From Palleronia caenipelagi (GTDB lineage Bacteria > Pseudomonadota > Alphaproteobacteria > Rhodobacterales > Rhodobacteraceae): a DNA stretch of 39,868 bases. Positions 3,001-39,419 of the stretch are shown in pieces. Below the pieces are notes generated by a model. It did not search any database and was not told the origin of the DNA. It was given only the letters and a program-made list of their open reading frames with translations. How positions within the stretch are numbered: position 1 is the stretch's first letter; every line of letters begins with the position of its first letter. A program made the translations under genes and the position numbers. The stretch spans positions 1 through 39,868 of the forward strand of contig NZ_VFSV01000030.1 in NCBI RefSeq assembly GCF_007004065.1. Direction: 5' to 3'.

Positions 3001-3073
3001 GGATCAGCGAATTATGTTCCGATCAAGCGAGAGCTTTTCACATTATCTGCCACATACCGCCAACCGATGCATT

Positions 3074-11872: not shown

Positions 11873-11894
11873 CGGCTCCTCCCGCGATGTCTGG

Positions 11895-11927
11895 AAAAAG
11901 TGCTCCCGGCCGATGACCGGCCGGGAG
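11895..11927 (-). terminator. Hairpin between dctP and dctQ (partial terminator or mRNA stabiliser)
   Basis: A perfect 10-bp GC-rich stem (CTCCCGGCCG / CGGCCGGGAG, 5-nt loop, 11903-11927) lies in the 65-bp dctP-dctQ gap. On the minus strand it is followed after a few bases by five T residues (11899-11895). Such structures after a binding-protein gene commonly let that gene be expressed more than the permease genes. Whether it terminates or protects the mRNA cannot be decided here. Confidence 0.7.
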
Positions 11928-11937
11928 GGAGATGGGA

Positions 11938-15265: not shown

Positions 15266-18200
15266 CTAGCGCCACGCCGCGCACGAGCCATCTTCATTCC
15301 GGTCGACGCATTCTTTCTTCTTCCGATCGATGTTGATGTTGAACTTCACGCAGACGCCTCCAATGTTCGCCGTGCCCGCCGGACATTTGGGTTGCTCCCG
15401 GACGACTTTGACGCAGCCGCGGCCGGACTGGAAGGAGTAGCCCTTCGTGCAGCCACAGCTGGTCTTGCTGATCTGAACCATGCCCTTGTAGCGGCAGACG
15501 CAACTGGAGCCACGCTTGACGGTTGTACCCTTTTCGCAGCGCAGGCCCCCACTCGTTGTCCCGCCACCGGACTTGCGCTTGACGCAGCCCTGACCCGCCT
15601 TGAAGTCGTAGCCCTTCACGCAGCCGCAGCTGGTCTTGTTCCGTTCGTACATGTTTCTGAAGCGGCAGGCACAGGCGCCATTCTTGAGGACCGCAGTCGC
15701 GGCATCACACACCAGCGGGGGTCGCGGCATTGGGGGCAGATCCACGCTGACGCAGACTGGTTCTGCGGCGCTCGATGATTGCAGCCCCAGCTTTTCGAGC
15801 AATTCCGGTGAGACCTCGCCCGTCGGAACAAGGCCAAGACGCTCCTGCAACTCGCTGACACCGGCGGCGGTTTGCTTGCCCGGCAACCCGTCCACGGGCC
15901 CGCCGTCAATCCCCATCAGCTGCATGGCAGACTGGACGATGGTCACCTGCTGGAAACTGCTGTCGCCAAAGCCCTGAGCCACGCAGTTCTCAAAGCTCCC
16001 ACCTTGCCGCAGACCCGGGATCGTCAGATCCATGGCGACCGAAGTGGACTGGCCGGGGGCCAGCGCCACATTGCCGGTCAGGCAACTCACGCCACCACCG
16101 CCCGCCGGGGTGCATTCCAGATCGCCACCGGTCACCTTGGCATCACGCGGTTCCGGAGACCCGAACTGATCATCAAGGACCAGTGGGCCAGTATAGGGCG
16201 CGTCGTCGGTGTTGGTCACGGAAATCTCAAATCCGCAACGGTAGGTCTGCGCAGATTTATTGACCTCGCAAGCACCTGTAGAAGCCTTTTCCAAGGCCAG
16301 GCCACTGCTGACCGGTGTCACGATGATGTTCTCCGAGGCAGGCACCGTGAAATCGACGCAGCTTTTGACCTCATCTGCCGGACCGCCCCACGCCCCGAGT
16401 GCGGGTTGCCCCCGAGCCGCAGACACGCAGTTCTCGTGCTCCTTAGGATCCGCATTCGGCGGGAAGGTCAGCGTGCTGGTCAGGTCCAGTGCACCACCCG
16501 CAGCGGTCAGCGTATCGGTCGCGAACGTGCAGGTCGCAGACAGCAGACCGTCCACATCCGCAGCCGGAGCACAGATCACACCGTCGGGCAGGACAGACAT
16601 CGCAAGCGTTCCGGCACCCGGCACGATATCGCTGAGCTCGGTCAGGGTGATCGTCTCGCCCGCGGGCAGCGCTTGTCCCTGAACAGTGAGCGTGCAGCTG
16701 ACTTCCCAGCCGGTTTCGGTCTCAACCGGTTCGGCGCACATCTTCTTGATGCCCAACTCTGGCTCGCCCGGATCTTCGCGCGGCGGCAGATCGATATCCG
16801 CGCAATCACCTGCGGTCATCGTGTCAAGCGTCGTCGTCACGCAATTCTGTCGCTGCTGCGGTTCTTCGGTTGCGGGGTAGCCGACATCGAAATTGAGAGT
16901 GAGACTCCCGCCCCCTGCAATCACCGCATCCGTAGGCACATCGCACGGCTGAACCCACTGGTTGTTCTGATAGACCGCCGACCCCATGCAGTAGGATACC
17001 GACCCGGTGTCAGGCGATATGCTGCCGCCCGGCTCGGTATTGGTGATCCCGGTTTGCTCCATCAGGGCAATGGTGCCGCCCGGCGTCAGGTTTGAGCCGG
17101 TCACAGTGACCGTGCAAGCAACCACGTATTCCTCGAATTGGCGGACCGGGGCCCCGCAGGTCTTGGTGACATCAATCACCGGCAGTTCAGGCAGGCTGTG
17201 CGGGATGATCTCGCAGGACTGCGGTGCGATCGCCGTTGGCACAAGGGATTGCCCGCCCGGATCCTGCGCCAGCGCGCTCGCGCAGTTCTGCCATTCGGTG
17301 CCATCCACCAAATCGCTGTAGGTCACCGTGACCGGGACCACCACGGTGCCCCCATTGGCGACGAGATGGGAGACCGGCATTGTGCAGTCGAGACCGCTGG
17401 CATTCAGACTCTGGCATTGCACCGGAGCCGCCGCCGGGCTGCTGACCGTCAAAGCCGGATCTGCCAGCAGGTTTGATGCGACGTCGTTGAAGCGGATCTC
17501 GTCGCCCGCTGGCAAGCCGCTGCCGGTCACCGTGAGCAGGCAATCCACCGCAAATCCTGCGGGACCCTCTCGGGGGATGTCACAAGTCTTCCTGATGGTC
17601 AGCTCGGGGTCAACAACCGGGACGGTCGCAGGGATAGTGACGCGTTCGCAGTCTGGCGCCGCATCCCAGCTGAGGATGTCGCCCAGCCCATTATTTGGCG
17701 CAACGACCGACGCATTACCGCAATTCACCACGGTCTGGTCCGTCGTGCCGTAGGGAACATTCATTGTCACAGAGATCGGCAGTCTGTCATTATTCTGCGT
17801 GATGAAGTCGTTGTCGATCTGACAATTTGCTCCGGGGCCGGACGACGCAGGCCAGTTCGCGCAGTTATAAGGCGGGCCTGGGGGAACCGAGAGGGTCACA
17901 CCGGTCGCGGACGTCCCCGCTCCGAAGCTGTCCTCAACCCCGGTCTTGCCGCCAGAGGGCAGATTTGCCCCGGTGACCGTGATGTCACAATCGACACGCC
18001 AGTCGGAGCCGGTATCAACAGGCGTCTGGCAAATTTTCCTGACGGAGATCGTTGTGGGGTCGGGAACCGGATCGTCGGCCATGGTGAGATCTTCGCAATA
18101 CTCGGTCTCGGATTTGCCATCGACGATCGCGCAGTTCTTCCAGTCCCCCAGATCTTCACCCGCGCCGGGGATCGTCACCGAAATCGGGATAGTGTAACCA

Positions 18201-21200
18201 AGCTGAGGGTCGATGACTCTGTTCTCGACGGTGCACTCCATACCCAGACCCGCGAGGGTCGGGAGCGGTGTGCAATTCACCGGGCTGCCGCTGGGACCGC
18301 TGAAGCTGGCCTGCGGGTTTGAGGTCTGAGCCTTCAGCAGATCCGTCACAGTCGTGTTTCCGTTGGGGTCAAGCCCTTGCTCCTCCACAGTGATGGAGCA
18401 TTGCAGATCCCAACCCGTGGACGTCGGGGTGGCCGGATCACATGACTTCGTGACCTCGGGCAGCTCTGGCGTGCCAACAATGGTGATGCGGTCGCAATCC
18501 TCCGGTCCCTTCTCGACCAGAGCGAGGCCACCCGACGGCACGATCGGTTGATAAAGACCGCTGCTCGCGCAGTTTTCCCAATCGGCCCCATCACCCGTTC
18601 CGCTGAAGGTCATGTCCACGGGGATCGTGACTTCGCCGCCCGCAAGCGCCAGCGCATCAGAGGACATCCGGCACAGCACGTCCGGCGCGGCACCGGGCGT
18701 CGGCGCATCGCAGGTCACAGGCGGGCTGGGGCGGGGGGTCAGCGACACCGAGCTGCCGACACCGAGATTGGTTGCGAAATCGCGAATCTCAACCGTTCCA
18801 ATCAGCGGCATGTCGCTGCCACGCACGATGATGTTGCACGCCGCGAAATAGGTGCCATCGTCCTGCGCAACAGCTTCGCCACAGTCTTTCTCGATCTCCA
18901 GCTCAGGATCGACCGGATAGCTGATCGGCACACAGAGAGCCTTATCCGCATCAGGCTGATCGCCGGGATTAACGCAGTTTTTCACTTCCGCTAGGTTGGG
19001 TTCCGTCGGTGGGAAGCTCATCAGCACGTCGATCCGAACCATGTCCCCCGCCGCAGCGAAGTCTGCCGGGGTAATGGTGCAGCCGGTCGCGGGCGACGTC
19101 GTACAGGTCGCGTTATCGCTCGTCAGGCTGCCAATCGTCCCTGACGTCGCATTCTGAATGAAATCGGTGATCGTGATCGGGGATGTCAGCTGCGGCCCGC
19201 TGTGGCTGACCTCGATGGCACACTTGAAGCTCACCGGCTGCCCCAGAATATCATTGGGCACCCACTGACAGCGTTTTGCCAGTTCGATTTCAGGCGCGGC
19301 CTCCCAACTGATGCAGGATTTCGTGATTTCGTCAGCAGGCAGCATCCCATATTTGTTCAGCGGATTATTCGGATCGCTCAGATCCACCGGGCCCAGAACT
19401 TCGTCGTCAGCGACGCGCAGCAGGTAGACGCAGTTCTTGCCTTCGGTCACTCCATCACCCATCTGCGCGGTGACAGTCACCGTCTCGCTCGTGTTTGCCG
19501 GAATGTTCACATCGAGCACACAGGGCGATGACAGATCGGGGAGGCACTGGCCGGGCAGAACCGGGTTGGTCGCGCTGATCGAGGTGACCGGGCCACCGGA
19601 GAACAATTCAGTGAAAGCATAGCGCCCGGCGATCGGGTCCGCTCCGGCGGTGATCGTAATCTCGAACGTACACTCCTGTCCGGCGAGACACTCCCCATCA
19701 ATGACCTTAGAGATTTCGAGATCGGTTTCCTTGATCTTCACAGGCGCGCAGGCGCGTTTCTGGCCCTGTCCACCCGGCGGCAGCGCATCGCGCAGGTTGA
19801 CGCAATTCTCGGCCGGAGTCCCGTTCGCATCGTAGCCCTGCCCCGGTGCGGGGAACCAGGTGACGCGGTAGCTCCGCTGGCCTCCCGGCAAGATCGTGGC
19901 ATTCTCCGAGCACCCTGCCTGAGACGTCAGGTTATTGATGTTGCCGCAGATATCCGCGGTGATCGCGGTGAATTTGCCCGGCGACTTGGAGCCATAGTCC
20001 ACCACCATGCTGTCATTGATGTTCAGAGCGCCAATATACGGACCTGTGCCAATATTGCGCACGGTGATGTTAAAATAGCACGGCTTGCCCGCCTCGCAGA
20101 ACTCGGTTTCGGCGGTCTTGACGATTTCCAGATCTGCTTTGGAGCCGAAATGGAAGCACGCCCGGTCAGATGAGCCGCCAGCCGCGCCGGACACGCAGTT
20201 CACGAACTCATCCCCAGCGGTCACGTAATACTGGTAGCTCGACGTAAAATTCGACCAGTTGGCGCTCGGTTCACGGGCGTCCCAGATCTTGCAGGTCATG
20301 TTGGCCGGAGCAGAGACTGGTGCATTGCAATCCCAATTATTTAGGGGCGCGACCGTCCCGGTGATCTCCCAGCCGCTGGTCGGAGAGGTCAGGCCATCAT
20401 CGAGTACCAGCGGATTCGACGCGGTGGGTGCCGGGCCACGGTACTGGACATTCACCGTGCAGAGCGCATCATCGTCGCCGTTGTAATTGTCTTCGACCGC
20501 GACGCAGCTTTTGGTGACCTCAAGATAGGTGTCCTTATCGCAGTCCGGGTCGTCCGGCGTACAAACAGGATTTGGATCGCAATCGTCGCCGACACATATT
20601 TTATCGCAGCCTGCGCCCTGACACTGGGTGCAATTCGGCCCGGCACAATAGCATTTTCCGGAGGTATCGCAGACACAATCGGGACCGACACAGCTCGACT
20701 CCCAGTCGGAGATATCGTCGCCGCCAAAGATCTCTCCGTCGCCGTTACAGCCAACGACTTCAACATCCCCAACCCGCCCGAGGCGCAGCTCTTCGGGATA
20801 GGACCCATCATAATCGTAGAACAGAGCGGTCCATGGGGGCGTATTCTTGAGGGCGTCAAAGGGATAGGGCTGGAATTGCACGCCATCGACCGGCAGGGCG
20901 CCACCGGGCTCCAGCTCGCGGCGCAAGCTCGGCTGGTTGCGCAGCAATTCACCCGACGCCCAAAGCGTTTCACGGCAGGTCCGCGGCACCAGCTGGCCCT
21001 CTTCATCCAGCTCCGGCCCGAGAGCCAGCCCCCCCAGCGCGTTGCGACCCTCGCGGGCAAAGCCAATCTGGTAGGGGGCCGCGACCGGCTCCCAGAGTTC
21101 CGGGGTCGTTGTGTCCTCGGGGTATTCCGCCGTGTAACGCAGAACATCCGACATCTGGTCGGGGACGAAGTTTTCCATCTCGAACTCGGCAAACACCGGC

Positions 21201-22384
21201 GGGCGCGTGGAGACGAGCATCTGCCCATCAGGCCCGAAATCCACGTCGAATACTTTGCTCTCAGGCTCGGTCTTGGTCACCGCAACCTCGAACCGCGGCG
21301 TCCCCAGTTCCCCTGTTTCCTTGTCGATCCCGATGGACCAGATTTCCGGTGCCTCTGTTGCGCCCGAGGCAACGGAATACCAAAGACGGCCCCCACGCAC
21401 TTCGAGCCCGCGCACCCGGCGGGCCGTCTGGGTCACGCCCCAGCTATCGGGATTGCCCGGATCAAAGAGCGGACTCTCCCGCTCGGCCTGCACCTCATCA
21501 TCAGCCACCGCTGTCCGCCCCACCAACGGCAGCGCCGTCAGCCCGTGATCGTAGACCTCCTGCTCGATGCCCGCAGCATTGATCCGGTGAATCGTGCCAA
21601 AATCCAGATCCGAGACGAAGATCTGGTCGTGCGTGGCATCATGGGCAATCCCACCAAGGGCGGCGCCGGAATTATCAAGCTCATCGTGGCGGATATTGGC
21701 AAACACACGGACTTGGCCCGTGCCACCATCCACGCGCCAGACGGTCCCCGGTCCGGCCTCCAGATCCGCCCCCCAGAGACCCGGCATCCACTCGGCCCCT
21801 TCGGCACCGCGGAACAACCTGTCCGGCACGCCGTCGTCGTCTGCATCGTCGCCAATGATCGGCAACCCAAATGACGAACCCGCGCTGAGATACAAGCCCG
21901 GTGTCTCGTCCAGATCCAGCGCCGCACCAAAGACCTGCCCCACATCCCGCGCCAAAAGCCGGTCATAGGGCCGGCGGCGCAGTTCGGAACCGTCATACGC
22001 GGTCGGGGTTTGGGTCGGATCGAGGAGCCCGGCGGAAATGCCGTCGAGATCGATGAACCGGTATCTGGGATCTTCGCGATCCCGCTCGGGCTGATCCGGA
22101 TCGATCTTGGGCGCCCGCATCCGCGTACCAGAAAACCCGGTCACCACAACGGCGCCGGGTCGAAAGAGGGGTTGCAAGGCACGGTCAGAGGGTCGCACCA
22201 CTTCGCTGCCATCCGGCAGCCACGCACGGGCCGGAGATGTAGGCAGAAGCCACCCGGTCGAGTTTTGCGGTGTCGCCACCACATCCCCGCCGGGCAGCAT
22301 CCAACCCGCCTGCGCCTCTGCCTGGGAAGTAAGGCCGATCGTTGAGAAAAGATATGTTAGCAGAACCAAAAATTTGATCTTCAT
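15266..22384 (-). CDS. Giant secreted DUF11-like repeat protein with peptidoglycan-binding-type domain and Cys-rich tail
   Basis: A 2372-aa secreted protein. A signal peptide (LVLLTYLFSTIGLTSQAEA) ends near residue 24. Residues about 30-555 look like a beta-propeller (for example GGIAHDATHDQIFVSDLDFG) and include an acidic calcium-binding-like loop (DDADDDGVPD). Residues about 560-615 are extremely Cys-rich (CxxxxCxC spacing). From about 620 to 2150 there are roughly 11 DUF11-like beta repeats, each opening with a pattern like LEVTKSC or LTIRKTC and carrying an ENCV/NCA segment near the end. Residues about 2150-2205 resemble PG_binding_1 (LMGIDGGPVDGLPGKQTAAG, LQERLG). The tail has two modules like SSCVCRYKGM...SCGCTKGY. 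ATG 22384 is chosen because it starts the signal peptide and GGGAG lies upstream. The architecture is shared with the 28898-35140 gene. It is likely a surface adhesin or structural protein; the exact role is unknown. Confidence 0.85.
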   Translation of the reverse strand: MKIKFLVLLTYLFSTIGLTSQAEAQAGWMLPGGDVVATPQNSTGWLLPTSPARAWLPDGSEVVRPSDRALQPLFRPGAVVVTGFSGTRMRAPKIDPDQPERDREDPRYRFIDLDGISAGLLDPTQTPTAYDGSELRRRPYDRLLARDVGQVFGAALDLDETPGLYLSAGSSFGLPIIGDDADDDGVPDRLFRGAEGAEWMPGLWGADLEAGPGTVWRVDGGTGQVRVFANIRHDELDNSGAALGGIAHDATHDQIFVSDLDFGTIHRINAAGIEQEVYDHGLTALPLVGRTAVADDEVQAERESPLFDPGNPDSWGVTQTARRVRGLEVRGGRLWYSVASGATEAPEIWSIGIDKETGELGTPRFEVAVTKTEPESKVFDVDFGPDGQMLVSTRPPVFAEFEMENFVPDQMSDVLRYTAEYPEDTTTPELWEPVAAPYQIGFAREGRNALGGLALGPELDEEGQLVPRTCRETLWASGELLRNQPSLRRELEPGGALPVDGVQFQPYPFDALKNTPPWTALFYDYDGSYPEELRLGRVGDVEVVGCNGDGEIFGGDDISDWESSCVGPDCVCDTSGKCYCAGPNCTQCQGAGCDKICVGDDCDPNPVCTPDDPDCDKDTYLEVTKSCVAVEDNYNGDDDALCTVNVQYRGPAPTASNPLVLDDGLTSPTSGWEITGTVAPLNNWDCNAPVSAPANMTCKIWDAREPSANWSNFTSSYQYYVTAGDEFVNCVSGAAGGSSDRACFHFGSKADLEIVKTAETEFCEAGKPCYFNITVRNIGTGPYIGALNINDSMVVDYGSKSPGKFTAITADICGNINNLTSQAGCSENATILPGGQRSYRVTWFPAPGQGYDANGTPAENCVNLRDALPPGGQGQKRACAPVKIKETDLEISKVIDGECLAGQECTFEITITAGADPIAGRYAFTELFSGGPVTSISATNPVLPGQCLPDLSSPCVLDVNIPANTSETVTVTAQMGDGVTEGKNCVYLLRVADDEVLGPVDLSDPNNPLNKYGMLPADEITKSCISWEAAPEIELAKRCQWVPNDILGQPVSFKCAIEVSHSGPQLTSPITITDFIQNATSGTIGSLTSDNATCTTSPATGCTITPADFAAAGDMVRIDVLMSFPPTEPNLAEVKNCVNPGDQPDADKALCVPISYPVDPELEIEKDCGEAVAQDDGTYFAACNIIVRGSDMPLIGTVEIRDFATNLGVGSSVSLTPRPSPPVTCDAPTPGAAPDVLCRMSSDALALAGGEVTIPVDMTFSGTGDGADWENCASSGLYQPIVPSGGLALVEKGPEDCDRITIVGTPELPEVTKSCDPATPTSTGWDLQCSITVEEQGLDPNGNTTVTDLLKAQTSNPQASFSGPSGSPVNCTPLPTLAGLGMECTVENRVIDPQLGYTIPISVTIPGAGEDLGDWKNCAIVDGKSETEYCEDLTMADDPVPDPTTISVRKICQTPVDTGSDWRVDCDITVTGANLPSGGKTGVEDSFGAGTSATGVTLSVPPGPPYNCANWPASSGPGANCQIDNDFITQNNDRLPISVTMNVPYGTTDQTVVNCGNASVVAPNNGLGDILSWDAAPDCERVTIPATVPVVDPELTIRKTCDIPREGPAGFAVDCLLTVTGSGLPAGDEIRFNDVASNLLADPALTVSSPAAAPVQCQSLNASGLDCTMPVSHLVANGGTVVVPVTVTYSDLVDGTEWQNCASALAQDPGGQSLVPTAIAPQSCEIIPHSLPELPVIDVTKTCGAPVRQFEEYVVACTVTVTGSNLTPGGTIALMEQTGITNTEPGGSISPDTGSVSYCMGSAVYQNNQWVQPCDVPTDAVIAGGGSLTLNFDVGYPATEEPQQRQNCVTTTLDTMTAGDCADIDLPPREDPGEPELGIKKMCAEPVETETGWEVSCTLTVQGQALPAGETITLTELSDIVPGAGTLAMSVLPDGVICAPAADVDGLLSATCTFATDTLTAAGGALDLTSTLTFPPNADPKEHENCVSAARGQPALGAWGGPADEVKSCVDFTVPASENIIVTPVSSGLALEKASTGACEVNKSAQTYRCGFEISVTNTDDAPYTGPLVLDDQFGSPEPRDAKVTGGDLECTPAGGGGVSCLTGNVALAPGQSTSVAMDLTIPGLRQGGSFENCVAQGFGDSSFQQVTIVQSAMQLMGIDGGPVDGLPGKQTAAGVSELQERLGLVPTGEVSPELLEKLGLQSSSAAEPVCVSVDLPPMPRPPLVCDAATAVLKNGACACRFRNMYERNKTSCGCVKGYDFKAGQGCVKRKSGGGTTSGGLRCEKGTTVKRGSSCVCRYKGMVQISKTSCGCTKGYSFQSGRGCVKVVREQPKCPAGTANIGGVCVKFNINIDRKKKECVDRNEDGSCAAWR

Positions 22385-22478
22385 TTTATATGTTCTCCCA
22401 GACAGAGCATCCGGCCGGCATAATCCCAGCCAGATGTTGCAGACACTTTCACCATAAGAGACGTGACGCCCCGGGCGC

Positions 22479-22496
22479 TTCACCCGTTTGGGTGAA
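22479..22496. promoter_or_regulatory. Perfect inverted repeat in the divergent promoter region of the giant gene and SGNH operon
   Basis: TTCACCC-GTTT-GGGTGAA, a 7-bp perfect inverted repeat with a 4-bp spacer, lies between the giant gene (start 22384, minus) and the SGNH gene (start 22597, plus). A one-mismatch version is at 28803-28820 in the other divergent promoter of this island. It is a candidate operator, possibly for the LuxR-type protein encoded at 23574. Confidence 0.6.
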
Positions 22497-22596
22497 AGCC
22501 GCCACTGATGTGTGTAAAATGACATTCCATACTGCTACGCTCTGACCTAAGGTTTAGAAAAACAAGCCCAAGTTAGGGATTGATGGGTGCCGGGAC

Positions 22597-23577
22597 ATGA
22601 GGCCAGACAAACTGGAAACGCTTGATCAGCTGATGTCTTCCGATCAGGCCGAGGAGGCACGGGCCTATTTTACACGCAATTACGACATGTCGTGGCCAAG
22701 CCCCTTTCGATGTGAAATCACAGAAAGAGTGCCGCCGGCGCCCCGGTCTGACAGTACGGTGTGGCAGCCCGAAGGCGCGACCGGTCTGCGCGGAATGCTC
22801 TTTCGCACGGTCTCTGCCATCGACAATTCCCGGCGCAATCGCCGCTTTTCCGAGGGGCCGGGGCATGAATCGGGCCTTCCGGTGATTACGCAAGGGGACA
22901 GCTGGTTCGCGTTTCCGATCATCGAGCCGGTGGATGTGAGTGAAAGCCTGGGGCGGCTGACGCCGGTCTATTCCCTGGCCTGCCCCGGCGACGAGATGCG
23001 CGACATTTGTCGGGGGGAGCAGCTCGACGAGCTCGCCTGGGCGGTCGAGGAAACCAAGGCCAGAAACGTGGCACTGTCTGCGGGTGGCAACGAGATGATC
23101 GGTGAAGAATTCCCCGACATCCTGCGCCCCGTCGATCATGCGCAATCGGCAACAGATTATCTTCACCTCGACCGGGTCAACCGAAAGATCGCAGAGCTGA
23201 TCGACGGCTTTGAGCGGATCATTCAGCATCTGGTCCGGATTGACCCGGAGATCCGCGTCTATGCCCACAGTTACGACTACCCCTTTCCCGATGTGCGGCA
23301 AGGTCGTTTCATGGGGCGGGCGCTGGATCGTGCGGGCATCCCACCCGACCGTCATCGGGCCGTTTGCAGTCAGATCATCGACCTGCTGGACAACGCGATG
23401 GTGACGCTGACGTACCGCTACCCCGGAACCTTCTCCCGGGTTGATTTTCGGGGAGTCAGCGGCGCGCGACCCGACGCATGGGCAGATGAAGTCCACCTGA
23501 CCACGGCGACGGCGGCCCTCGCGGCCCGCCGGCTCTTTGACGACATCATACGTCGCAACCACGGGTCCCACATATGA
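22597..23577 (+). CDS. SGNH/GDSL-type hydrolase
   Basis: This 326-aa protein carries the SGNH hydrolase blocks: VITQGDSWFAFP with nucleophile Ser102 (block I), ALSAGGNEM with Asn165 (block III, GxND-like), and DEVHLT with Asp297 and His300 (block V, DxxH). Family members hydrolyse esters of lipids, glycans or acylated polymers. No signal peptide is evident; the N-terminal 90 residues are charged and unassigned. The gene is the first of three coupled genes, and its stop overlaps the next start by 4 bp (ATGA). The inverted repeat at 22479-22496 lies 100 bp upstream. The fold is well supported; the substrate is not predictable. Confidence 0.82.
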   Translation: MRPDKLETLDQLMSSDQAEEARAYFTRNYDMSWPSPFRCEITERVPPAPRSDSTVWQPEGATGLRGMLFRTVSAIDNSRRNRRFSEGPGHESGLPVITQGDSWFAFPIIEPVDVSESLGRLTPVYSLACPGDEMRDICRGEQLDELAWAVEETKARNVALSAGGNEMIGEEFPDILRPVDHAQSATDYLHLDRVNRKIAELIDGFERIIQHLVRIDPEIRVYAHSYDYPFPDVRQGRFMGRALDRAGIPPDRHRAVCSQIIDLLDNAMVTLTYRYPGTFSRVDFRGVSGARPDAWADEVHLTTATAALAARRLFDDIIRRNHGSHI

Positions 23578-25175: not shown

Positions 25176-25987
25176 GCGCCGAGCACGACCCACGGCAGAT
25201 CGGTGCCGCAGATTTGGAATGGTACGAAACAGGCCATATCAACAGTACGCTGATCCTGACCGAGCTGGCCCGCATTGACAGGCGCCAAGGTCGCCAGATC
25301 GCTATATACTGCCAGCTGCCGGATTATTTCAAACTGACCTACTCCGCCGGCACACCGCTCTGGGCCTGGATCGGCGGGCGACACCGGGACGCGCGGGTCA
25401 TTTCACAGATCCTGCACGGGTTTCATGGAGGCGGAGGCGCGGAAGTGTCCCGCAGGCAAGCCTTTCTCCGGGCGCGATTGCGCAGCTACATGCGCGAGGG
25501 GGCACCGGACTGGCAGCTGGGGATCACCGCCCACGCGCTGGGGGACGCCTTTGCCCACACCTATCGCGACGATGACGGCGAGCGACACGCTTATGGCTAT
25601 CCTCTGGGACATGGGCTTGACTTCATCTGCGGGGTGAAACCCGATCACATCTCGCAACATCCCGAGCTCTATCTCGACTACTGCCGCGCGCTTTACTGGG
25701 CTTTGTGCGGAGAAGATGCCCGGGACAGCATCGAATTCGCCGGGTTTGAGGGCGGATTTCGTGCGACTCTGAGCCATCCCCGGTTTCAGGAGGCGTCCCG
25801 CGCCGGGCAGGAGGCCATGGTTACCGATTACATCGTCGAGCGCTCCCGCGATGACACCACCCATGCGGATTTCAGGACTGCGATGGACGCGCTCGATTAT
25901 GACGAGGTGATCGGTCTCTTGCGGAGCTTTGCGGTGGATCTGGAAGGTTGGGAGCCCGATGGTCAGTTTCGGCACCGCCCCGCATAG
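25172..25987 (+). CDS. Unrecognised His-rich protein, possibly zinc-phospholipase-C/DUF6765-like
   Basis: This 271-aa protein has no signal peptide. It contains a central cluster ITAHALGDAFAHTYRDDDGE (His121, Asp125, His129), then HAYGYPLGHGLD (His139, His147) and KPDHISQHPEL (Asp157, His159), preceded by LHGFHGG (His82, His85). The HxxxD...H pattern with further His and Asp residues resembles metal-binding helical proteins of the zinc-dependent phospholipase C / DUF6765 kind, but I am not sure of the family. It is the last gene of the coupled three-gene operon. Its 3' end overlaps the convergent caspase-like gene by 25 bp, so the two operons meet tail to tail. Confidence 0.6.
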   Translation: MSAEHDPRQIGAADLEWYETGHINSTLILTELARIDRRQGRQIAIYCQLPDYFKLTYSAGTPLWAWIGGRHRDARVISQILHGFHGGGGAEVSRRQAFLRARLRSYMREGAPDWQLGITAHALGDAFAHTYRDDDGERHAYGYPLGHGLDFICGVKPDHISQHPELYLDYCRALYWALCGEDARDSIEFAGFEGGFRATLSHPRFQEASRAGQEAMVTDYIVERSRDDTTHADFRTAMDALDYDEVIGLLRSFAVDLEGWEPDGQFRHRPA

Positions 25988-27636: not shown

Positions 27637-27652
27637 CGCTCAGCCCCCCGCC

Positions 27653-28729
27653 TCAGACATAGTTCAGCGCCCGGTCTTCGAGATCATCGCGAAGGGCGGC
27701 GAGGGAATAGGCAAAGTTGCTCACGCGTCGGATCCCGGCGAAATGCACGCCCACAACCGTAGCGCTGCTCTCCCCAAGATCGACCACGGGCGAGCCGGAA
27801 TTGCCGCCGAGCGTGGTGCAGTCATGGCCAAACACGGCCTTGTCAGAGGTCTCGGCCACCTCCCCCAACCCGGAGGACACCTCGCCCGGACAATAGCGCT
27901 TGCGCCCGTATTCACAGTTGAAGAGCCGTTGCAGCAGGGAAAAGCGCTCGGTTCCCGGCAGGGGTTTTCCGGGATAGCCCACGATATAGACAGGGCGGTT
28001 CGGCAGCACAAAGCTCCGGCTGTCCTCCAGCCGCAGCGCCCCGGGCAGTTCCCCCCCGTCCAGCGCCGCGGCGACATCCATCAACACATAATCCCGACCC
28101 AACCCGCAGGTGGAGATGTCCTGCTCTGAGAGCCGAAAGCCGCGCTCGGCCCCATGATCACCAAACGCGATGGTCGCCTCGCCCCGAAACCGCCAAGCCC
28201 CATCCTGCCCCTCTGCCAGCCCTTCGAGCACGTGGCGGTTCGTCATGATCGTGTGCGGACCCACAACGAAGCCGGTCCCCATCTGCCGGTCTCCGAGATT
28301 GATCCGGCCGACAGATTGCGCGACCTCCTCGATCCGCGCTGCATCACGGAGCGTGACCTCAGCCCACTCGCCCAGGCGATCCGGCTCGGCCATGAGGGCA
28401 CCATCCCTGAAATCCACCACCGGACGGATCCCGTCGATGACCACAAGAGCTTCGAGCGCCATGATATCGGGCGGACTGAGCGCGGCATGGCCCCCGTCAC
28501 TCACCAGCTTCCCCAACGCCCGCCCGGCTGCATCCGTCAGACCCTCGCGCTCTGCTTCGCTGACCTCGGCCGTAGCGAGTTTAGAGGCCAACTTGTCCTG
28601 CAATCTCGCGCTTTCCGTGTCATCCAGGCGGGGATCAGGCGGCGGAATAATCACCTCGCGGGCCACCGTTCCAGCCACGGCGGGGACGGGTTTCGCCAGT
28701 AATTTCAGGTAGGACGACGCGGCAGACAT
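27653..28729 (-). CDS. Trypsin-like serine peptidase with N-terminal adaptor-like region
   Basis: This 358-aa protein has a trypsin-like domain in its C-terminal 220 residues, with an intact triad: His166 (IMTNRHVLEG), Asp213 (GRDYVLMD) and Ser311 (TLGGNSGSPVVDLG). Residues about 30-130 are helical and charged (DDTESARLQDKLASKL) and look like a protein-interaction or effector-associated module rather than a signal peptide; no export signal is seen. ATG 28729 is the start; no strong ribosome-binding site is visible. It is cotranscribed with the caspase-like gene and divergent from the second giant gene. Trypsin-like peptidases paired with caspase-like ones are known in bacterial conflict systems. 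The N-terminal domain assignment is uncertain. Confidence 0.82.
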   Translation of the reverse strand: MSAASSYLKLLAKPVPAVAGTVAREVIIPPPDPRLDDTESARLQDKLASKLATAEVSEAEREGLTDAAGRALGKLVSDGGHAALSPPDIMALEALVVIDGIRPVVDFRDGALMAEPDRLGEWAEVTLRDAARIEEVAQSVGRINLGDRQMGTGFVVGPHTIMTNRHVLEGLAEGQDGAWRFRGEATIAFGDHGAERGFRLSEQDISTCGLGRDYVLMDVAAALDGGELPGALRLEDSRSFVLPNRPVYIVGYPGKPLPGTERFSLLQRLFNCEYGRKRYCPGEVSSGLGEVAETSDKAVFGHDCTTLGGNSGSPVVDLGESSATVVGVHFAGIRRVSNFAYSLAALRDDLEDRALNYV

Positions 28730-28802
28730 GCGTGTATGTCAAAGCACATTCACCCGATTGGCAAGGCCTTGAGGCGCCGATTTCTGCGCCGCGTGATCGC
28801 TT

Positions 28803-28820
28803 TTCACCCTTTTGGGGGAA
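28803..28820. promoter_or_regulatory. Variant of the shared inverted repeat in the second divergent promoter
   Basis: TTCACCC-TTTT-GGGGGAA matches the perfect repeat at 22479-22496 except for one base in the right arm and the spacer. It lies between the trypsin-like gene (start 28729, minus) and the second giant gene (start 28898, plus), the equivalent position to the first copy. Confidence 0.55.
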
Positions 28821-28897
28821 GCGGGACGAGTTGGGTCCAGATTTCATGAACCGGACTCATTCCGCCTTTCGGGGCACATCACGGATTGGACAGGATC

Positions 28898-31078
28898 ATG
28901 CTGGCGACCTTTGTAAAAGTTCTCATACCGGTCATTGTCATCAGCCTGCGTGCGCTCCTCCGCGGATTTGGCCTGCGCACCCGGCTGGCGGTTCTGAGCC
29001 TCCTGCTCTACGCTACTGCCTTGGGTCTCGGAGCGCCGGCTTCGGCGCAGAGCCTCCCACCGAATGTGGGGTCCAAACAGCTCTGTCAGTACGAAGCGAC
29101 CCCCACCGCCTGCCAGCCCCTGCCCGGGCAGGCACAGTTCGGTGTCGTCTATTCCTACGAATTCCTCGTTGACGCCTCCCTGTTCAGCGGAAATGACCCG
29201 GCATTTCCAATCACCGAAGACTTCACCAATTTCACGCCAATTTCGCCAAATCCTGTTGTGTGCACCTCGGATAACTGGGCCACGACCTTCACGCCCAACA
29301 TCCAAAGCGCCGGGCCGCCGATGCTTTTGGATCTGAACGTCACGGGAGGGCAGATCTATTCGTGCAGGCTCAGCGGCGTGTTTACCGGGTTCGGCACAAA
29401 CGCTCTGAACAACGTCCATCACACCGGCAACCCGGAGCCGAGCGATACCAGCGAGAGGCTGAGCACTCCCCTGCCCGCGAATCCGAATCTCGATGCGGAC
29501 TTCATCCTCGAGAAGACAGTCATCACGACGCCCGATATCGATATTTCGAGCGGTCCCGCCACCGCGACATTCGAGATCACCCTGACCCGCAATCCCAACG
29601 ACACATCGCCTGCTGTGGTGCTTGGCCCGTATTTCAGCGTTTTCGACGAGATGGGCCTCAATCTTGGTTCGGTGCCCCTGTCAGCTGTCTTCCAGACTGG
29701 CGGCTTTAGCTGTGACTTCATTCCTGGTTCCAATGCGACCAGCACGGCCCAGTCCAATGTCTGTACCCCGAACATCGCGCCGGGCAATGCACTGAACAGC
29801 CCAGGTGGCACAGGTGGTCTGGTGGAATTCGAGTTTCCCGGAACCAACCCGACGATTTTCCTCCAACCTGGCGATAAGGTTGTCATCCGGTTCGACGTTG
29901 AAATTGGTCTTTTGCCAAACACGACCTGTGTCCTCAGCGACCCGGTCGGGGCCTATAACCGGGCCTTCCTCGCGCTGGCCGACGGCACCACAGCCCTAAA
30001 CGACACGGATAACAGCAACAACACGACTCTGGACGTGGCACTGAACGCGACAACGGGGATCAGTTTTGATCCGAACGCCTGCGCTCAACCGACCGGCGGT
30101 GGAGGCACCGGCAGCGGCACACCGCCGCCCGACCTCAAGCTCACGAAGACTGTGGTCAACAGTCAGCCGACCTACGCCTGGAATCAACCGATCCGCTTTC
30201 TGATCAAGGTCGAAAATATCGATCCGACCGATAGCGTGTATGACCTGAACCTCACTGACATCTTCCAGAATCTGGCCTTCACCCCGAATTTCGATTTCAC
30301 GGTGTCGAACGTGTCAATCGTGTCCTGTGGTTCCGGCAATTGCGTGCTGAACTCCTGGTTTTCCGGGACGGGTCACATGACCAGCTATTCCGACAACGAA
30401 GTGGTTCTGACCGCATCCATCCCGGAATTGCCGGCAGGACAAAGCGCAGAATTCGCTCTCGACATTACGCCCAACGTTCCGATCTGCGATGTTTCTTCGA
30501 GCTTCCCCGACAAGTTCATCCAGAACGGTGTCTACACGACGTTTGACTATATCGACTTCACCACCAACACGCGTGTGGGAGCGTTCGCGGCCACTGCCGT
30601 TCAGGTCGAGATGGAACCTGTGCCGCCCTGCGATATCGAAGTCATCAAGGATATTCTGACGCCTCCGGCGATCGAGTTTGGCGCACGGACGGTCTATGAG
30701 GTGACTTACAGAAATATGGGAGCGCGCACTCTGACGATAGGAACCGTGATCGACGCCTTGCGCATCACGGTGCCCAATTACGCCAATTCCATGGACGTCC
30801 GCTACAGATATGACTGCATGGATAATGGCGGCGTGACGGGCTATTCCACGACCTCCTCCCCTGGCGGAGTGTATCTGACGGGCAGCGTGACATACACGTC
30901 CCAGCCCAATCAGGGCCTGCGGTTGATAGACCATCCTGGCCCGGTGGTCTTTGCACCGGGGTCTATGCTCAGATGCGGCGTCGAGCTGATCGTTGAAGAA
31001 CCCGACGTCAACGACCCCTACTGCTTCAGCTCCGTGCAGGATATGCCGTTCATCGAGAACACGACCTTCATGGATTAG
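28898..31078 (+). CDS. Second giant DUF11-like repeat protein, N-terminal part up to an in-frame amber codon
   Basis: 726 aa. The N-terminus has two hydrophobic stretches separated by RGFGLRTR; the second (LAVLSLLLYATALGLGAPASA) ends in a signal-peptidase-like ASA-QS site near residue 50. Beta-rich repeats follow, opening with LEKTVITTPD, LKLTKTVVNSQ and IEVIKDILTPP, typical of DUF11-like repeats, with a Gly/Pro linker (GGGGTGSGTPPP) between two of them. ATG 28898 is preferred; an in-frame TTG at 28886 is possible. The frame ends at TAG 31076-31078 but stays open, codon for codon, into the 31145-35140 segment. The two are best seen as one gene of about 2084 codons interrupted by a single stop. 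As written, this part lacks the peptidoglycan-binding and Cys-rich end. Confidence 0.75.
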   Translation: MLATFVKVLIPVIVISLRALLRGFGLRTRLAVLSLLLYATALGLGAPASAQSLPPNVGSKQLCQYEATPTACQPLPGQAQFGVVYSYEFLVDASLFSGNDPAFPITEDFTNFTPISPNPVVCTSDNWATTFTPNIQSAGPPMLLDLNVTGGQIYSCRLSGVFTGFGTNALNNVHHTGNPEPSDTSERLSTPLPANPNLDADFILEKTVITTPDIDISSGPATATFEITLTRNPNDTSPAVVLGPYFSVFDEMGLNLGSVPLSAVFQTGGFSCDFIPGSNATSTAQSNVCTPNIAPGNALNSPGGTGGLVEFEFPGTNPTIFLQPGDKVVIRFDVEIGLLPNTTCVLSDPVGAYNRAFLALADGTTALNDTDNSNNTTLDVALNATTGISFDPNACAQPTGGGGTGSGTPPPDLKLTKTVVNSQPTYAWNQPIRFLIKVENIDPTDSVYDLNLTDIFQNLAFTPNFDFTVSNVSIVSCGSGNCVLNSWFSGTGHMTSYSDNEVVLTASIPELPAGQSAEFALDITPNVPICDVSSSFPDKFIQNGVYTTFDYIDFTTNTRVGAFAATAVQVEMEPVPPCDIEVIKDILTPPAIEFGARTVYEVTYRNMGARTLTIGTVIDALRITVPNYANSMDVRYRYDCMDNGGVTGYSTTSSPGGVYLTGSVTYTSQPNQGLRLIDHPGPVVFAPGSMLRCGVELIVEEPDVNDPYCFSSVQDMPFIENTTFMD
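31076..31078 (+). other. Single in-frame amber codon splitting the second giant gene
   Basis: The codons around it read ...ACC TTC ATG GAT TAG GCC ACG TAT CAC AAT.... The frame is open for 2181 bases before and 4062 bases after with no other stop. One base change from TAT or TAC (Tyr) or CAG (Gln) would create it. It could be a real nonsense mutation, a sequencing error or a readthrough site. Confidence 0.8.
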
Positions 31079-31144
31079 GCCACGTATCACAATCCTAATC
31101 TGGCCTTTCCCACCGGCCCGAGAGGGAGGGTCTGGGACCATCAG

Positions 31145-34100
31145 TTGACCGAGTTGCCGCGCTGCGTGAAGCTCGAGGTGACCAAGGCCGCTACTCCCAG
31201 CCAGACCGGTCCGCAGGGTCCCTTTGTCGGCACCTCCGACATCTCGTACACGGTCGAAGTCCTGAACTCCTCGAACAGTGGCGCGGATGGTGCTGTAAAT
31301 TTCGGCCCTACTTTCGGAGCGGAGATTCGTCTGACAGACGTGCTCTCCACTTCGCCGATGCCGACCCTGACCCTGCAAGCTCCGGACCCCTGTGCCGGCA
31401 CAACGGATTGCGACAGCTCCGCCTTCCCCAGCACGGCCAGTATCAACACACTCGCGGCGCAAGGGCGGCTTGCGTTCAAATACACCGCAACGCCAAACCC
31501 AGGTTTTTCACCCGACCGCTTCTGTAACACCGTCCGGGCGGATCTGTTGTTCGGCGGCCAGCCCTTCGATCCCAGGCTGTGGTACATCCGGGGCAACTGG
31601 CAAGACCAATTCTGCGTCGACGTGCGCAACCGCGTGACCGTGACCAAGGTATTGGACCTTCCGCCGAACATCACACTTGATCCCGCCGCGACATTCGATG
31701 TGACGCTGAATTGCGACCGTCCTGCGGGTCCCGGCTATCCGGCGAAATCACCCTACACCAAGACGATTGACCTCACCGCCCAACAACTGACTGGCAGCGA
31801 TGTCGTCTGGGTCGGGTCCAATTGCACGGTCTCCGAAACTCCCCCGGACCCCAGCTGGTTACCCGGTCATTGCAGCTGGGACGCGCCAGCCTACGCCCCG
31901 GCCAGCTTCACCAGCGATGCATCTCAGAATGACTGGGACGTGACCGTGACCAATCGGGCGACCTGTGAGTATCGGGACGTGACGATCAACAAGTCTGTAA
32001 TCACGGCCAGCAACCCGCAGAACGTCACCCTGCCGCCGGGACAGGTGCTGGCGAATCCCGTTCCGAACACCTCCATCCAGATCACCCTGGAATGCGAAGA
32101 TGGCATCCCGCCGGATCCGGACCACACCCTCACCTTCCCTGTCGGTCTGACGGGTGGCTCCGGGACTCTCCAGAATGTGGAGGCCAACATGAGCTGTACC
32201 GTGACCGAGACGACCTCTCCCCAAGCGCCCGCAGGGTGTCAGTGGACCAGCTCTATCGGCACGGGGACCACGTTCCCGGTCAGCAGCCTGACGCCCGTGC
32301 GCAGCCCGAACAATCCCGGAAATGGCGTTTCGTTCGATTTCGACAATGTCTACACCTGCACGACCGGTGCGCAATTCGAGATCGTCAAGCAGATCGTCCC
32401 GAGCCCTGCTTGGCAACCGGGCACTCAGATCACCTTTGACGTGACCGGCTGCACCAATGGGGCGACCCCGTCTCCGTCCAGTGTGACCATGACCTGGCCT
32501 CAGGACTTCAGCAACGGGCAGAGCAGCGCCCTGATCGGGCTCTCAGGGACCTCCGGCACGATGCCGACCTGTGCCGTCACCGAGACCGTCAACGTCGCCG
32601 GCTTGCCGCGCTATTGCGGCGTGACGGTCGAGGTTTCTCTCGATGGTGGGGCGACCTGGCAAATTACTCCCACCGCTCAGGTGCAAAGTTCAGATGACGG
32701 GTTGGTCAATGGAAACCCGCCGACGCGCGTTCTCTTCCGCAACAACGCCCATTGCGAGATGGACGCTGAGGGGAGCATTTCCAAGGGGATCAACAACGCG
32801 CCGGGCTTCGTTGCGCCAGCCGGTTACGCGGTCACTCCGCCACCCGCCGGCAACCAGTATGTGGTGGACATGTCCTGTACGGGCGGCGGCACCAACACCC
32901 CGAATGTGACACGCACCTTTACCCTCGACAGCCTCAGCACTTCGGACAGCTGGCTTGCCTTCCAGGGTCAGACCTGCACCTTCACCGAGCGCCAGCCTCC
33001 GGCGCCCGCCCCTGGTTGTTACTGGGCCCCGGTATCCTACACACCGTCAAATTCCCTGACGATGGCCGGCGGCAATAACCAGATCACGGTGCACAACACC
33101 TATCTCTGTTCGACACAGGCGCCCGCCGAGCTGGTGGTGAAGAAAATCGTGAATCCGGGGGGCAATCCCAACCCACTCTGGGAGTACAGGACCCCTCCGG
33201 CCAACACCGTCTATGGCTTCCCGATCATCTGCAACAATCCTCCCTCCCTGCAAAGTCTGAGTATCCCGAATCCGGCCGGAGGCAGTGCATCTCTCTCGGG
33301 TCTCCCCGTGGGTGCCGACTGCGAAGTGACCGAGGCAAAGCTGACCAACGCGGCGCGGCGGTGTAAATGGGAGACCACGATCACACCACCGGGCGGCCTG
33401 ATCACCCTGAAGCCCGGCCAGAACGTCGTGACGGTCACGAACCGCTACCTCTGCCGACGGTTCTTTTGGTGGGATATCGACTTCGAAATCGTACTCGACA
33501 AGGTGGATGACTTTGTCCTCGGACTCCCGCCCATAGGTGGTGGCATGGCCGGATGCTCGGGCGGCGCATCTGCCGAAAACCCGCAGATCTCTCTCAACCC
33601 CGGAGAACGCCAGAGTGTGACTATTCAGCCGGGTGGAGATGAGCCCTTCGCCTGTCAGATCGCCCCGGCGGTGCTGCCCGATGCCCCCGAAGGATGTGCG
33701 TGGCAGGAGCCCTCGGTCGAATACTCGACCGACGGTGGCGAGAGCTGGACCAGCGCTCCCCCCGAGATCAGTTTTGCCCCCGGTATCGAGGGCAATCCCG
33801 AGGTCCTGATCCGCCCCGACCTGCAATGTGAACCAGACGAAGCGCGACTGGAGGTCGAAAAGACCTGCACTCCCGATCGCCTGGATCTCACTGGCGACGC
33901 GCGAAACGTGCCGATCAACTGCACGCTGATCGTTCGGGGGGAGAACCTGCCCGAGGGCCACGACATTCGTCTGACCGACACGCTGAACGGTGCGAGACCG
34001 ATCTCTGTTCAGGGGTCCACGCCGGATGGCGGACGGTGCCAGCTTGACCGCGGCACTGGCCAGACGACCTGCATGGTCTCGGGAGCGTCTCTTGGTGATA

Positions 34101-35140
34101 CGGGAGAGGTATCTGTCGATCTCCAAATTATGCTCCAGGATCTCGCCGCAGAAACCACCGTAGAGAACTGCGTCACCGCGATGAGCGAAGGCCCCGACGG
34201 AACCGGGATCGAAGCACCCATGGAGGCCTGTGCCATCGTGGAGATCACGCGCGCAGCTCCGCCCGCACCGGACGTGATCCGGTTCGAACTGGACAAGGCC
34301 TCTCTTGAGGACTGTTCCGTGAACCGCGAGGCCCAGAGCTATGACTGTCCCTTCGGCCTTGAGATCCGGAATACCGGCACCGCCGATTTCACCGGCCCCA
34401 TGGTCCTGACCGATCGCGTCATCGAGGGCCCTGCCCCGACCGCAGCCCGGCTCGTTGAGGGAGAGGGATGGACCTGCCCCGGCGTCTCCGAAGGTGCGCT
34501 GACCTGCCTCAACGGTACCCTGTCGCTGCCCGCCGGACGCTCTGATCGGGTGGCGGTCAATGTGACCCTGCCCGGGCTCCGCGAAGGCGGTCAGTATTGC
34601 AACCGTGTGATGACCGGTTTGGGGGATGATCCGACCCTGCAAACGCTCGTGGTGCAGCAGGCCATGGGACTGATGGGGATCGATGTCGGCCCCACCGACG
34701 GCAAAGCAGGCCCCCGCACCGAGGAAGGTGTGCGGGAACTCCAAGAGCGTCTCGGGCAGGAGCCCACCGGGCAGATCGATGGCTCTCTCCTCACCGCTCT
34801 GGGTGTGCCAAGTCTCGATACTCTGCAAAAAGCCGAGGCATGCGTTCCACTGCCCCCAATGCCCGCACCGCCTCTGGCCTGCCATCCGGCGACATCCGTG
34901 AAACGCGGCGAGGCGTGTGTCTGTCGGTACAGCGGCATGGTCCAGAAAACCCAGACGTCTTGCGGCTGCAAAAGCAACAGTGTGCTGATCGAGGGCAAAG
35001 GCTGCATCATCCGCGACCGCGCAAAGCCTGACCCGCTCCCTGTCCGTCGTTGTGATCCCCAAACCACCGTACAACGTGGCGAAGCATGTGTCTGCCGCTT
35101 CAAAGGCATGCGCCGGATCTCTCCAACCCAGTGCCAGTGA
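31145..35140 (+). CDS. Second giant DUF11-like repeat protein, C-terminal part with peptidoglycan-binding-type domain and Cys-rich tail
   Basis: 1331 aa from a possible TTG start, but the frame is open from 31079 and continues the upstream gene, so this start is only what remains after the stop; a GGGAGG 14 bases upstream might allow reinitiation. It has no signal peptide. It has about nine beta-repeats, opening with LEVTKAAT, VTVTKVLD, VTINKSV, FEIVKQIV, GSISKGIN, LVVKKIV, FEIVLDKV, LEVEKTC and FELDKAS; several have a CTVTE/CTFTE end like surface-protein prealbumin-like repeats. Near the end comes a peptidoglycan-binding-type domain (LMGIDVGPTDGKAGPRTEEG, LQERLG) and two Cys-rich modules (EACVCRYSGM...SCGC, EACVCRFKGM). 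This end is paralogous to that of the 15266-22384 protein. Without readthrough it would not be exported. Confidence 0.72.
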   Translation: MTELPRCVKLEVTKAATPSQTGPQGPFVGTSDISYTVEVLNSSNSGADGAVNFGPTFGAEIRLTDVLSTSPMPTLTLQAPDPCAGTTDCDSSAFPSTASINTLAAQGRLAFKYTATPNPGFSPDRFCNTVRADLLFGGQPFDPRLWYIRGNWQDQFCVDVRNRVTVTKVLDLPPNITLDPAATFDVTLNCDRPAGPGYPAKSPYTKTIDLTAQQLTGSDVVWVGSNCTVSETPPDPSWLPGHCSWDAPAYAPASFTSDASQNDWDVTVTNRATCEYRDVTINKSVITASNPQNVTLPPGQVLANPVPNTSIQITLECEDGIPPDPDHTLTFPVGLTGGSGTLQNVEANMSCTVTETTSPQAPAGCQWTSSIGTGTTFPVSSLTPVRSPNNPGNGVSFDFDNVYTCTTGAQFEIVKQIVPSPAWQPGTQITFDVTGCTNGATPSPSSVTMTWPQDFSNGQSSALIGLSGTSGTMPTCAVTETVNVAGLPRYCGVTVEVSLDGGATWQITPTAQVQSSDDGLVNGNPPTRVLFRNNAHCEMDAEGSISKGINNAPGFVAPAGYAVTPPPAGNQYVVDMSCTGGGTNTPNVTRTFTLDSLSTSDSWLAFQGQTCTFTERQPPAPAPGCYWAPVSYTPSNSLTMAGGNNQITVHNTYLCSTQAPAELVVKKIVNPGGNPNPLWEYRTPPANTVYGFPIICNNPPSLQSLSIPNPAGGSASLSGLPVGADCEVTEAKLTNAARRCKWETTITPPGGLITLKPGQNVVTVTNRYLCRRFFWWDIDFEIVLDKVDDFVLGLPPIGGGMAGCSGGASAENPQISLNPGERQSVTIQPGGDEPFACQIAPAVLPDAPEGCAWQEPSVEYSTDGGESWTSAPPEISFAPGIEGNPEVLIRPDLQCEPDEARLEVEKTCTPDRLDLTGDARNVPINCTLIVRGENLPEGHDIRLTDTLNGARPISVQGSTPDGGRCQLDRGTGQTTCMVSGASLGDTGEVSVDLQIMLQDLAAETTVENCVTAMSEGPDGTGIEAPMEACAIVEITRAAPPAPDVIRFELDKASLEDCSVNREAQSYDCPFGLEIRNTGTADFTGPMVLTDRVIEGPAPTAARLVEGEGWTCPGVSEGALTCLNGTLSLPAGRSDRVAVNVTLPGLREGGQYCNRVMTGLGDDPTLQTLVVQQAMGLMGIDVGPTDGKAGPRTEEGVRELQERLGQEPTGQIDGSLLTALGVPSLDTLQKAEACVPLPPMPAPPLACHPATSVKRGEACVCRYSGMVQKTQTSCGCKSNSVLIEGKGCIIRDRAKPDPLPVRRCDPQTTVQRGEACVCRFKGMRRISPTQCQ

Positions 35141-39418: not shown

Positions 39419-39419
39419 G

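What the first reader, a model, noticed from the sequence alone, without database searches (positions are those of the whole stretch)
15266..35140. Candidate new system: twin giant DUF11/peptidoglycan-binding proteins flanking paired proteases, an SGNH hydrolase and a pseudo-hydrolase regulator
Seen: two giant proteins with the same C-terminal architecture (DUF11-like repeats, peptidoglycan-binding-type domain, CVCRYKGM-type Cys modules) face outward at the two ends of a 20-kb block. Between them are two convergent operons: SGNH / LuxR-HTH-hydrolase fold / His-rich protein, and trypsin-like / caspase-like-TM. Both divergent promoters carry a related inverted repeat. Known: caspase-like and trypsin-like peptidases co-occur in bacterial conflict systems, and DUF11-repeat proteins are surface proteins. 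Inference: the block is one functional unit, perhaps a surface structure processed or policed by the proteases and sensed through the LuxR fusion.
Basis: partly seen in the sequence, partly recalled or inferred. Interest (0 to 1): 0.8.

Follow-up and report, generated by a model that had tools for sequence, protein, structure and literature searches.

The report
Caspase–trypsin–SGNH module tied to giants
A rare block of seven bacterial genes, in which two protein-cutting enzymes, a lipase-like enzyme and an unusual gene switch sit beside two giant cell-surface proteins, seems to be inherited and controlled together and is probably a self-destruct or conflict device linked to the cell envelope.

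Summary
A five-gene core (SGNH hydrolase, LuxR–pseudo-hydrolase, DUF6765-like protein, converging with EACC1-type caspase and trypsin) lies between two giants. It recurs in the same order and orientation in two diverged MAGs at 39–58% identity but is rare: 1 of 394 family and 1 of 385 class genomes, own genome included.

The giants are tied to it. Giant A's N-terminal domain is in 3 of 3 core genomes and 6 of 394 family genomes; giant B's in 1 of 198 and in L002. The palindrome TTCACCC-N4-GGGTGAA marks both divergent promoters here and two block promoters in L002: 4 hits, 0.01 expected. Against: A homologs occur with no core nearby, the third MAG lacks a convincing palindrome, and giant B has an in-frame TAG.

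The SGNH domain is fused or adjacent to caspase/trypsin in 15 of 19 plasmid loci but only 1 of 7 chromosomal ones.

Best reading: a protease-switched, envelope-associated conflict module with a new enzyme partner, co-regulated with surface giants. Function is inferred, not shown.

The parts
15266..22525 (-). Giant A: NTD with only weak beta-propeller matches (res. ~120-595), DUF11-type repeats, PG_binding_1, two CxCR modules; likely start at 22384
22479..22496 (.). Palindrome TTCACCC-N4-GGGTGAA, perfect, between giant A and the SGNH operon (about 105 bp from each likely start)
22597..23577 (+). SGNH hydrolase with invariant GDSW, GGN and ExH blocks
23574..25175 (+). Regulator: unknown N-terminal region, LuxR/GerE HTH, C-terminal alpha/beta-hydrolase domain without catalytic residues
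25172..25987 (+). His-rich DUF6765-like protein, possibly a metal-dependent hydrolase (inference)
25963..27636 (-). EACC1-associated-type caspase (res. 4-225), TM at ~288, divergent C-terminal domain predicted periplasmic
27653..28729 (-). Trypsin-like protease, His/Asp/Ser kept in three orthologs, related to the protease part of a PADLOC nacht (Avs-type) model
28803..28820 (.). Palindrome, 1 mismatch, between the trypsin operon and giant B (about 85 bp from each start)
28886..35140 (+). Giant B: leader, repeats, DUF5979 repeats, PG_binding_1, two CxCR modules; interrupted at 31076-31078
31076..31078 (+). Single in-frame TAG in giant B; the L002 homolog's frame runs open through the equivalent place

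Best explanation
The block is a horizontally scattered, co-inherited conflict or cell-death module attached to the cell envelope. Shown by sequence: five core genes kept together in three genomes; active-site residues kept in caspase, trypsin and SGNH; catalytic residues lost in the LuxR-hydrolase fusion; a palindrome shared by core and giant promoters. Inferred: the LuxR fusion is a ligand-binding transcription factor whose dead hydrolase pocket senses an ester, lipid or peptidoglycan-derived signal and binds the palindrome, switching on the core and the secreted, wall-binding giants together. The membrane caspase senses envelope state through its variable periplasmic domain; caspase and trypsin form a proteolytic switch; that switch activates the SGNH hydrolase and perhaps the DUF6765-like protein, which attack the cell's own lipids, wall or another ester substrate. 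The giants are the outward-facing arm (adhesin, shield or bait).
For: Same gene order and orientation in L002 and L003. L002-L003 identity exceeds window identity for all five core proteins and the giant-A NTD, a congruent history. Giant-A NTD in 3 of 3 core genomes against 6 of 394 family genomes. Palindrome: 4 sites at up to 1 mismatch in window plus L002, 0.01 expected, largest of 200 simulations 1. Caspase passes NF047832 EACC1-associated caspase, 160.6 bits against 140. Trypsin matches PADLOC nacht at 4e-25. SGNH domain with caspase or trypsin in 15 of 19 plasmid loci, same reading frame in 9 of 19; 12 of 16 without the three loci that fed the models; 0 of 40 control loci. Caspase domain 61-69% identical among orthologs, C-terminal part 15-33%. 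Precedent: trypsin and caspase activate pro-nucleases in antiphage systems (PMC12799240, abstract and passages).
Against: No phenotype. In a chromosomal sample only 1 of 7 SGNH relatives has a caspase/trypsin within the fetched stretch. L003 has only 3-mismatch palindromes, not better than chance, and none lies near giant A in L040 or L039. Giant-A homologs occur without a nearby core. In G787 core and giant A are on different contigs, so linkage is unknown there. No sensor ATPase (STAND, MoxR) is in the core. Giant B has a stop. The two structure models failed, so active-site gating could not be examined. No core protein was found in viral contigs by three scans except one weak trypsin relative.
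Confidence: 0.5

Rival explanations
1. An envelope-building or remodelling locus: the giants form an extracellular or periplasmic structure, SGNH modifies its lipid or sugar esters, and the proteases do ordinary quality control; no conflict role.
For: The giants carry PG_binding_1 and Cys modules; shared operator between giants and core; SGNH relatives also sit beside amidase, chitosanase, L,D-transpeptidase and murein endopeptidase genes.
Against: SGNH, trypsin, LuxR fusion and His-rich protein lack export or membrane segments in the hydropathy scan; core very rare; protease families are those of conflict systems.
Confidence: 0.22
2. Two independent neighbours: a mobile caspase-trypsin-SGNH module inserted beside a surface-protein pair, with giants under an unrelated regulator.
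For: 5 of 5 other giant-A loci lack the core within 30-38 kb; one of them, G368, keeps a 2-mismatch palindrome upstream of giant A, so the operator may belong to the giants; the giants lie on opposite sides here but on the same side in L002; IS genes lie near both window ends.
Against: Giant-A NTD in 3 of 3 core genomes against 6 of 394 background; giant-B NTD 1 of 198 and present in L002; in L002 palindromes also precede the SGNH operon.
Confidence: 0.18
3. A small-molecule signalling circuit: SGNH and the DUF6765-like enzyme make or remove the ligand of the pseudo-hydrolase regulator, which controls surface adhesins; the proteases end the response.
For: Regulator and SGNH are translationally coupled (4-nt overlap); dead hydrolase domain next to a live hydrolase; six readable Rhodobacterales-range relatives of the fusion also lack the nucleophile.
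Against: No ligand or synthase identified; does not account for two proteases.
Confidence: 0.1

Closest known systems
EACC1-caspase membrane-associated two-gene system (Kaur et al. 2020, PMC7159879, section 33 read)
   Same: Caspase of the EACC1-associated subfamily with TM and a highly variable C-terminus.
   Different: No EACC1 gene: caspase and trypsin are 16 bp apart and no other ORF space is left; a trypsin gene takes its place. SGNH, LuxR-pseudohydrolase, DUF6765-like protein and giants are not described there (word search).
NucA-trypsin system of alphaproteobacteria (PMC7159879, section 32 read)
   Same: Trypsin-like proteases; that paper reports peptidoglycan-peptidase effectors; SGNH relatives also occur beside a NucA-trypsin protein (L086).
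   Different: No NucA-type nuclease among the core proteins.
Trypsin/caspase-activated pro-nuclease pairs, Hachiman, AVAST and canu (PMC12799240, abstract and passages)
   Same: Trypsin related to an Avs-type protease module; caspase beside a candidate effector hydrolase; same proposed logic.
   Different: No MBL-fold nuclease in the core; the trypsin is stand-alone; SGNH would be a new enzyme class for this logic.
SGNH-caspase, SGNH-trypsin, SGNH-amidase and SGNH-S8 fusions on alphaproteobacterial and cyanobacterial plasmids
   Same: Same SGNH family (18 aligned sequences keep the catalytic blocks).
   Different: The window keeps SGNH, caspase and trypsin as separate genes and adds LuxR-pseudohydrolase, DUF6765-like protein and giants.

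Membership tests
EACC1-caspase system | caspase of the EACC1-associated subfamily | tested here: met
   NF047832 160.6 bits, cut-off 140
EACC1-caspase system | 5' gene encoding EACC1 TM protein | tested here: not met
   the neighbour is trypsin, 16 bp away; no hydropathy TM segment in it; by my reading an EACC1-like ORF precedes the Caballeronia caspase (L070; not scanned against a model)
EACC1-caspase system | variable C-terminal module, often with TM | tested here: met
   TM at ~285-288 in three orthologs; C-term 15-33% identity against 61-69% for the caspase domain
NucA-trypsin system | NucA-type endonuclease | tested here: not met
   no nuclease among core proteins
Trypsin/caspase pro-nuclease pairs (canu, Avs1, Hachiman) | MBL-fold nuclease partner | tested here: not met
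Trypsin/caspase pro-nuclease pairs (canu, Avs1, Hachiman) | effector activated by partner protease | not testable with these tools
   needs biochemistry; structure models failed
VMAP/iSTAND ternary systems | MoxR ATPase and vWA proteins | tested here: not met
   none among the core proteins or giants scanned
SGNH/GDSL hydrolase | catalytic blocks GDS, GN and H | tested here: met
   G30-D31-S32-W33, G94-N95, E228, H230 invariant in 18 of 18 aligned sequences
SGNH/GDSL hydrolase | Pfam GDSL gathering score | tested here: inconclusive
   window protein no match, L003 ortholog 27.4 < 32.9; relatives L066, L068, L083 pass
LuxR/GerE regulators | GerE HTH | tested here: met
   26.8 bits, cut-off 23.5
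catalytic alpha/beta hydrolase | Ser nucleophile, acid, His | tested here: not met
   elbow AHGSG/ANATG/AHATG, acid region TTNNPF/TKDNPF/TKNNPF, His region TYPLFE/TFPFLE; a Ser/Thr lies one residue past the elbow position
DUF6765 | Pfam PF20551 gathering score 26.6 | tested here: inconclusive
   window 14.8, L003 20.1, L002 30.5

The most novel reading that the evidence does not exclude
Bacteria use caspase- and trypsin-type proteases to switch an SGNH lipase/esterase, a new class of protease-gated effector, and in this variant a ligand-sensing pseudo-hydrolase transcription factor couples that intracellular suicide switch through a dedicated 18-bp operator to giant wall-bound surface proteins, making an outside-sensing, inside-killing unit.
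Probability: 0.3. Interest if true: 0.8.

Novelty: new variant of a known kind. Interest (0 to 1): 0.6.

Why it matters
Caspase and trypsin modules are known to activate nucleases in bacterial immunity, and the authors of that work suggested other proteolytically activated enzymes may exist (PMC12799240, passage). The repeated fusion of one SGNH family to caspase, trypsin, amidase or subtilisin domains on plasmids is a concrete candidate. The block also offers a testable link, through a shared operator, between intracellular caspase-type proteases and surface giants, and a regulator whose sensor is a dead hydrolase.

Tried and rejected
Structure prediction of the His-rich protein and the LuxR fusion from three-sequence alignments failed (pLDDT 41 and 43), so no fold search was run. 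PDB sequence searches gave nothing significant for the His-rich protein (best E 0.099) or the SGNH profile, glutamyl endopeptidases for trypsin, and only a weak beta-propeller hint for giant A (E 0.026). Viral-contig scans: none for A1 and A3, one weak trypsin relative for A5. Plasmids: no P0003 relative at E 1e-20, one distant His-rich relative in Pseudomonas nitroreducens, no near match of the window's flank. Rejected: the idea that loss of the hydrolase nucleophile is special to this block, since 6 of 6 readable relatives also lack it (of 14 loci, 8 gave a frame and 2 of those were wrong-frame rows that I dropped). Rejected: that every SGNH relative is tied to caspase/trypsin (1 of 7 on chromosomes; a papain-type protease gene in 2 of 7 from 10 chosen ORFs of 6 loci). 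Of 25 plasmid records with SGNH matches I fetched 19; several are near relatives, so the 15 of 19 are not independent.

Literature: searches gave listings only, except PMC7159879 (passages, sections 32 and 33), PMC8195603 and PMC10907252 (passages), and PMC12799240 (abstract and passages). SGNH, GDSL and lipase do not occur in the main text of PMC7159879, SGNH not in that of PMC8195603; supplements were not open to me, so I do not claim that the association is unpublished.
Full report
WHAT IS THERE. The window is a whole contig (C117) of a 4.02-Mb, 192-contig genome. Pfam and NCBIfam support the trypsin, the EACC1-associated caspase, the GerE HTH plus alpha/beta-hydrolase fold, and DUF11/DUF5979 repeats with PG_binding_1 in the giants. 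The giants' C-termini are homologous, 39% over about 435 aa, each with two CxCR modules. Giant B is cut by one in-frame TAG at 31076-31078; the homologous L002 protein is open over 1918 aa and aligns up to that point (27% over 225 aa).

THE CORE IS A CONSERVED UNIT. One scan of 84,980 species genomes with the SGNH protein found two relatives. Both carry all five core genes in the same order and orientation. Window identities are 39-58%, and L002 and L003 are closer to each other than to the window for each of the five proteins and for the giant-A NTD, a congruent history. The unit is rare: the His-rich profile hits only the own genome among 394 family genomes and 385 class genomes, and only G786 and G787 themselves among 61 genomes around G787.

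THE GIANTS TRACK THE CORE, BUT NOT STRICTLY. The giant-A NTD is in 1 of 60 relatives, in both other core genomes, and in 6 of 394 family genomes. In L002's genome giant A is adjacent but split into two genes, and a giant-B homolog lies beside it. In L003's genome giant A is on another contig, so linkage is unknown. The giant-B NTD was found in 1 of 198 family genomes. Against strict coupling, the five other giant-A genomes show no core gene by tblastn within 30-38 kb.

A SHARED OPERATOR. TTCACCC-N4-GGGTGAA occurs at 22479-22496 (perfect) and 28803-28820 (1 mismatch), each near the middle of a divergent promoter. The own genome has five distinct sites at up to one mismatch, two of them here; the reversed-pattern control gave none. 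L002 has a perfect site between giant B and a LuxR-type gene and a 1-mismatch site just upstream of SGNH (at the 3-mismatch setting of that call the number of matches alone was not unusual, 31 of 100 shuffles having two or more). In window plus L002, four sites at up to one mismatch compare with 0.01 expected and at most one in 200 simulations. G368, which has giant A but no core nearby, has a 2-mismatch site upstream of giant A. L003 has only 3-mismatch matches, not better than chance; none lies near giant A in L039 or L040.

WHAT THE PARTS SAY. Caspase His/Cys and trypsin His/Asp/Ser motifs are kept in three orthologs. The SGNH blocks are invariant in 18 of 18 aligned sequences. The LuxR fusion has lost nucleophile, acid and His in three orthologs, as have the nucleophile position in 6 of 6 readable relatives. 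A hydropathy scan finds no membrane segment in SGNH, LuxR fusion, His-rich protein or trypsin, and one in the caspase between a conserved caspase domain (61-69% identity) and a divergent C-terminus (15-33%). Giant A's leader, read by eye as a signal peptide, did not reach that scan's threshold; giant B's did.

RELATIVES POINT TO CONFLICT SYSTEMS. Among 25 plasmid records with SGNH matches I fetched 19; 15 of 19 carry a caspase or trypsin by local profile, 9 of 19 in the same reading frame, against 0 of 40 control loci. Three of the 19 supplied sequences to those profiles; without them it is 12 of 16. The four without are L068 (fused S8), L071, L087 and L090 (adjacent S8 by annotation). Neighbours include amidases, chitosanase, L,D-transpeptidase and a NucA-trypsin protein. 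The link weakens in a sample of 385 class genomes: 7 other SGNH relatives, 1 of 7 with trypsin, a papain-type protease gene in 2 of 7; 0 of 7 control stretches. Published relatives are the EACC1-caspase and NucA-trypsin systems and trypsin- or caspase-activated pro-nucleases.

MECHANISM (INFERRED). The regulator's dead hydrolase pocket senses a ligand and drives the palindrome promoters; giants go to the wall; the membrane caspase monitors the periplasm; caspase and trypsin switch on SGNH and perhaps the DUF6765-like protein. Steps shown are co-inheritance, the shared palindrome and residue conservation; the rest is inference, at 0.5. Membership fails for each known system on a defining partner (EACC1, NucA, MBL nuclease, MoxR/vWA), so I call it a new variant that works like them rather than a member of any.

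Noticed in passing
window 31076-31078: Single in-frame TAG in giant B; sequencing error, recent inactivation or readthrough cannot be told apart.
   Followed up: partly
L065, L066, L078, L080, L081, L083, L085, L088, L089: SGNH domains in one reading frame with caspase or trypsin on alphaproteobacterial and cyanobacterial plasmids, a recurring architecture.
   Followed up: partly
L002 8759-9361: Extra LuxR-HTH gene between the two palindromes in the L002 block, absent from the window block.
   Followed up: no
L074 1501-1518 (G000:C1:182612): One-mismatch palindrome just upstream of an ORF that looks like a secreted CAP-type protein (my reading, no family scan).
   Followed up: no
L065 4255-7206, L066 2567-5427, L069 5061-7690: About 600-aa protein with no Pfam function plus a substrate-binding protein beside SGNH genes on three plasmids, a possible sensor pair.
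   Followed up: no
window 8146-12948: AP_endonuc_2 plus HPPD-like fusion protein followed by a TRAP transporter operon.
   Followed up: no
window 36058-37665: Hint_2 domain protein downstream of giant B.
   Followed up: no
window 346-3781 and 38989-39537: Transposase genes and fragments of several IS families near both contig ends.
   Followed up: no
L052 9410-18142: Cluster of three secreted-looking giant-A-type genes in G368 with PG-binding and CxCR modules but no core.
   Followed up: partly
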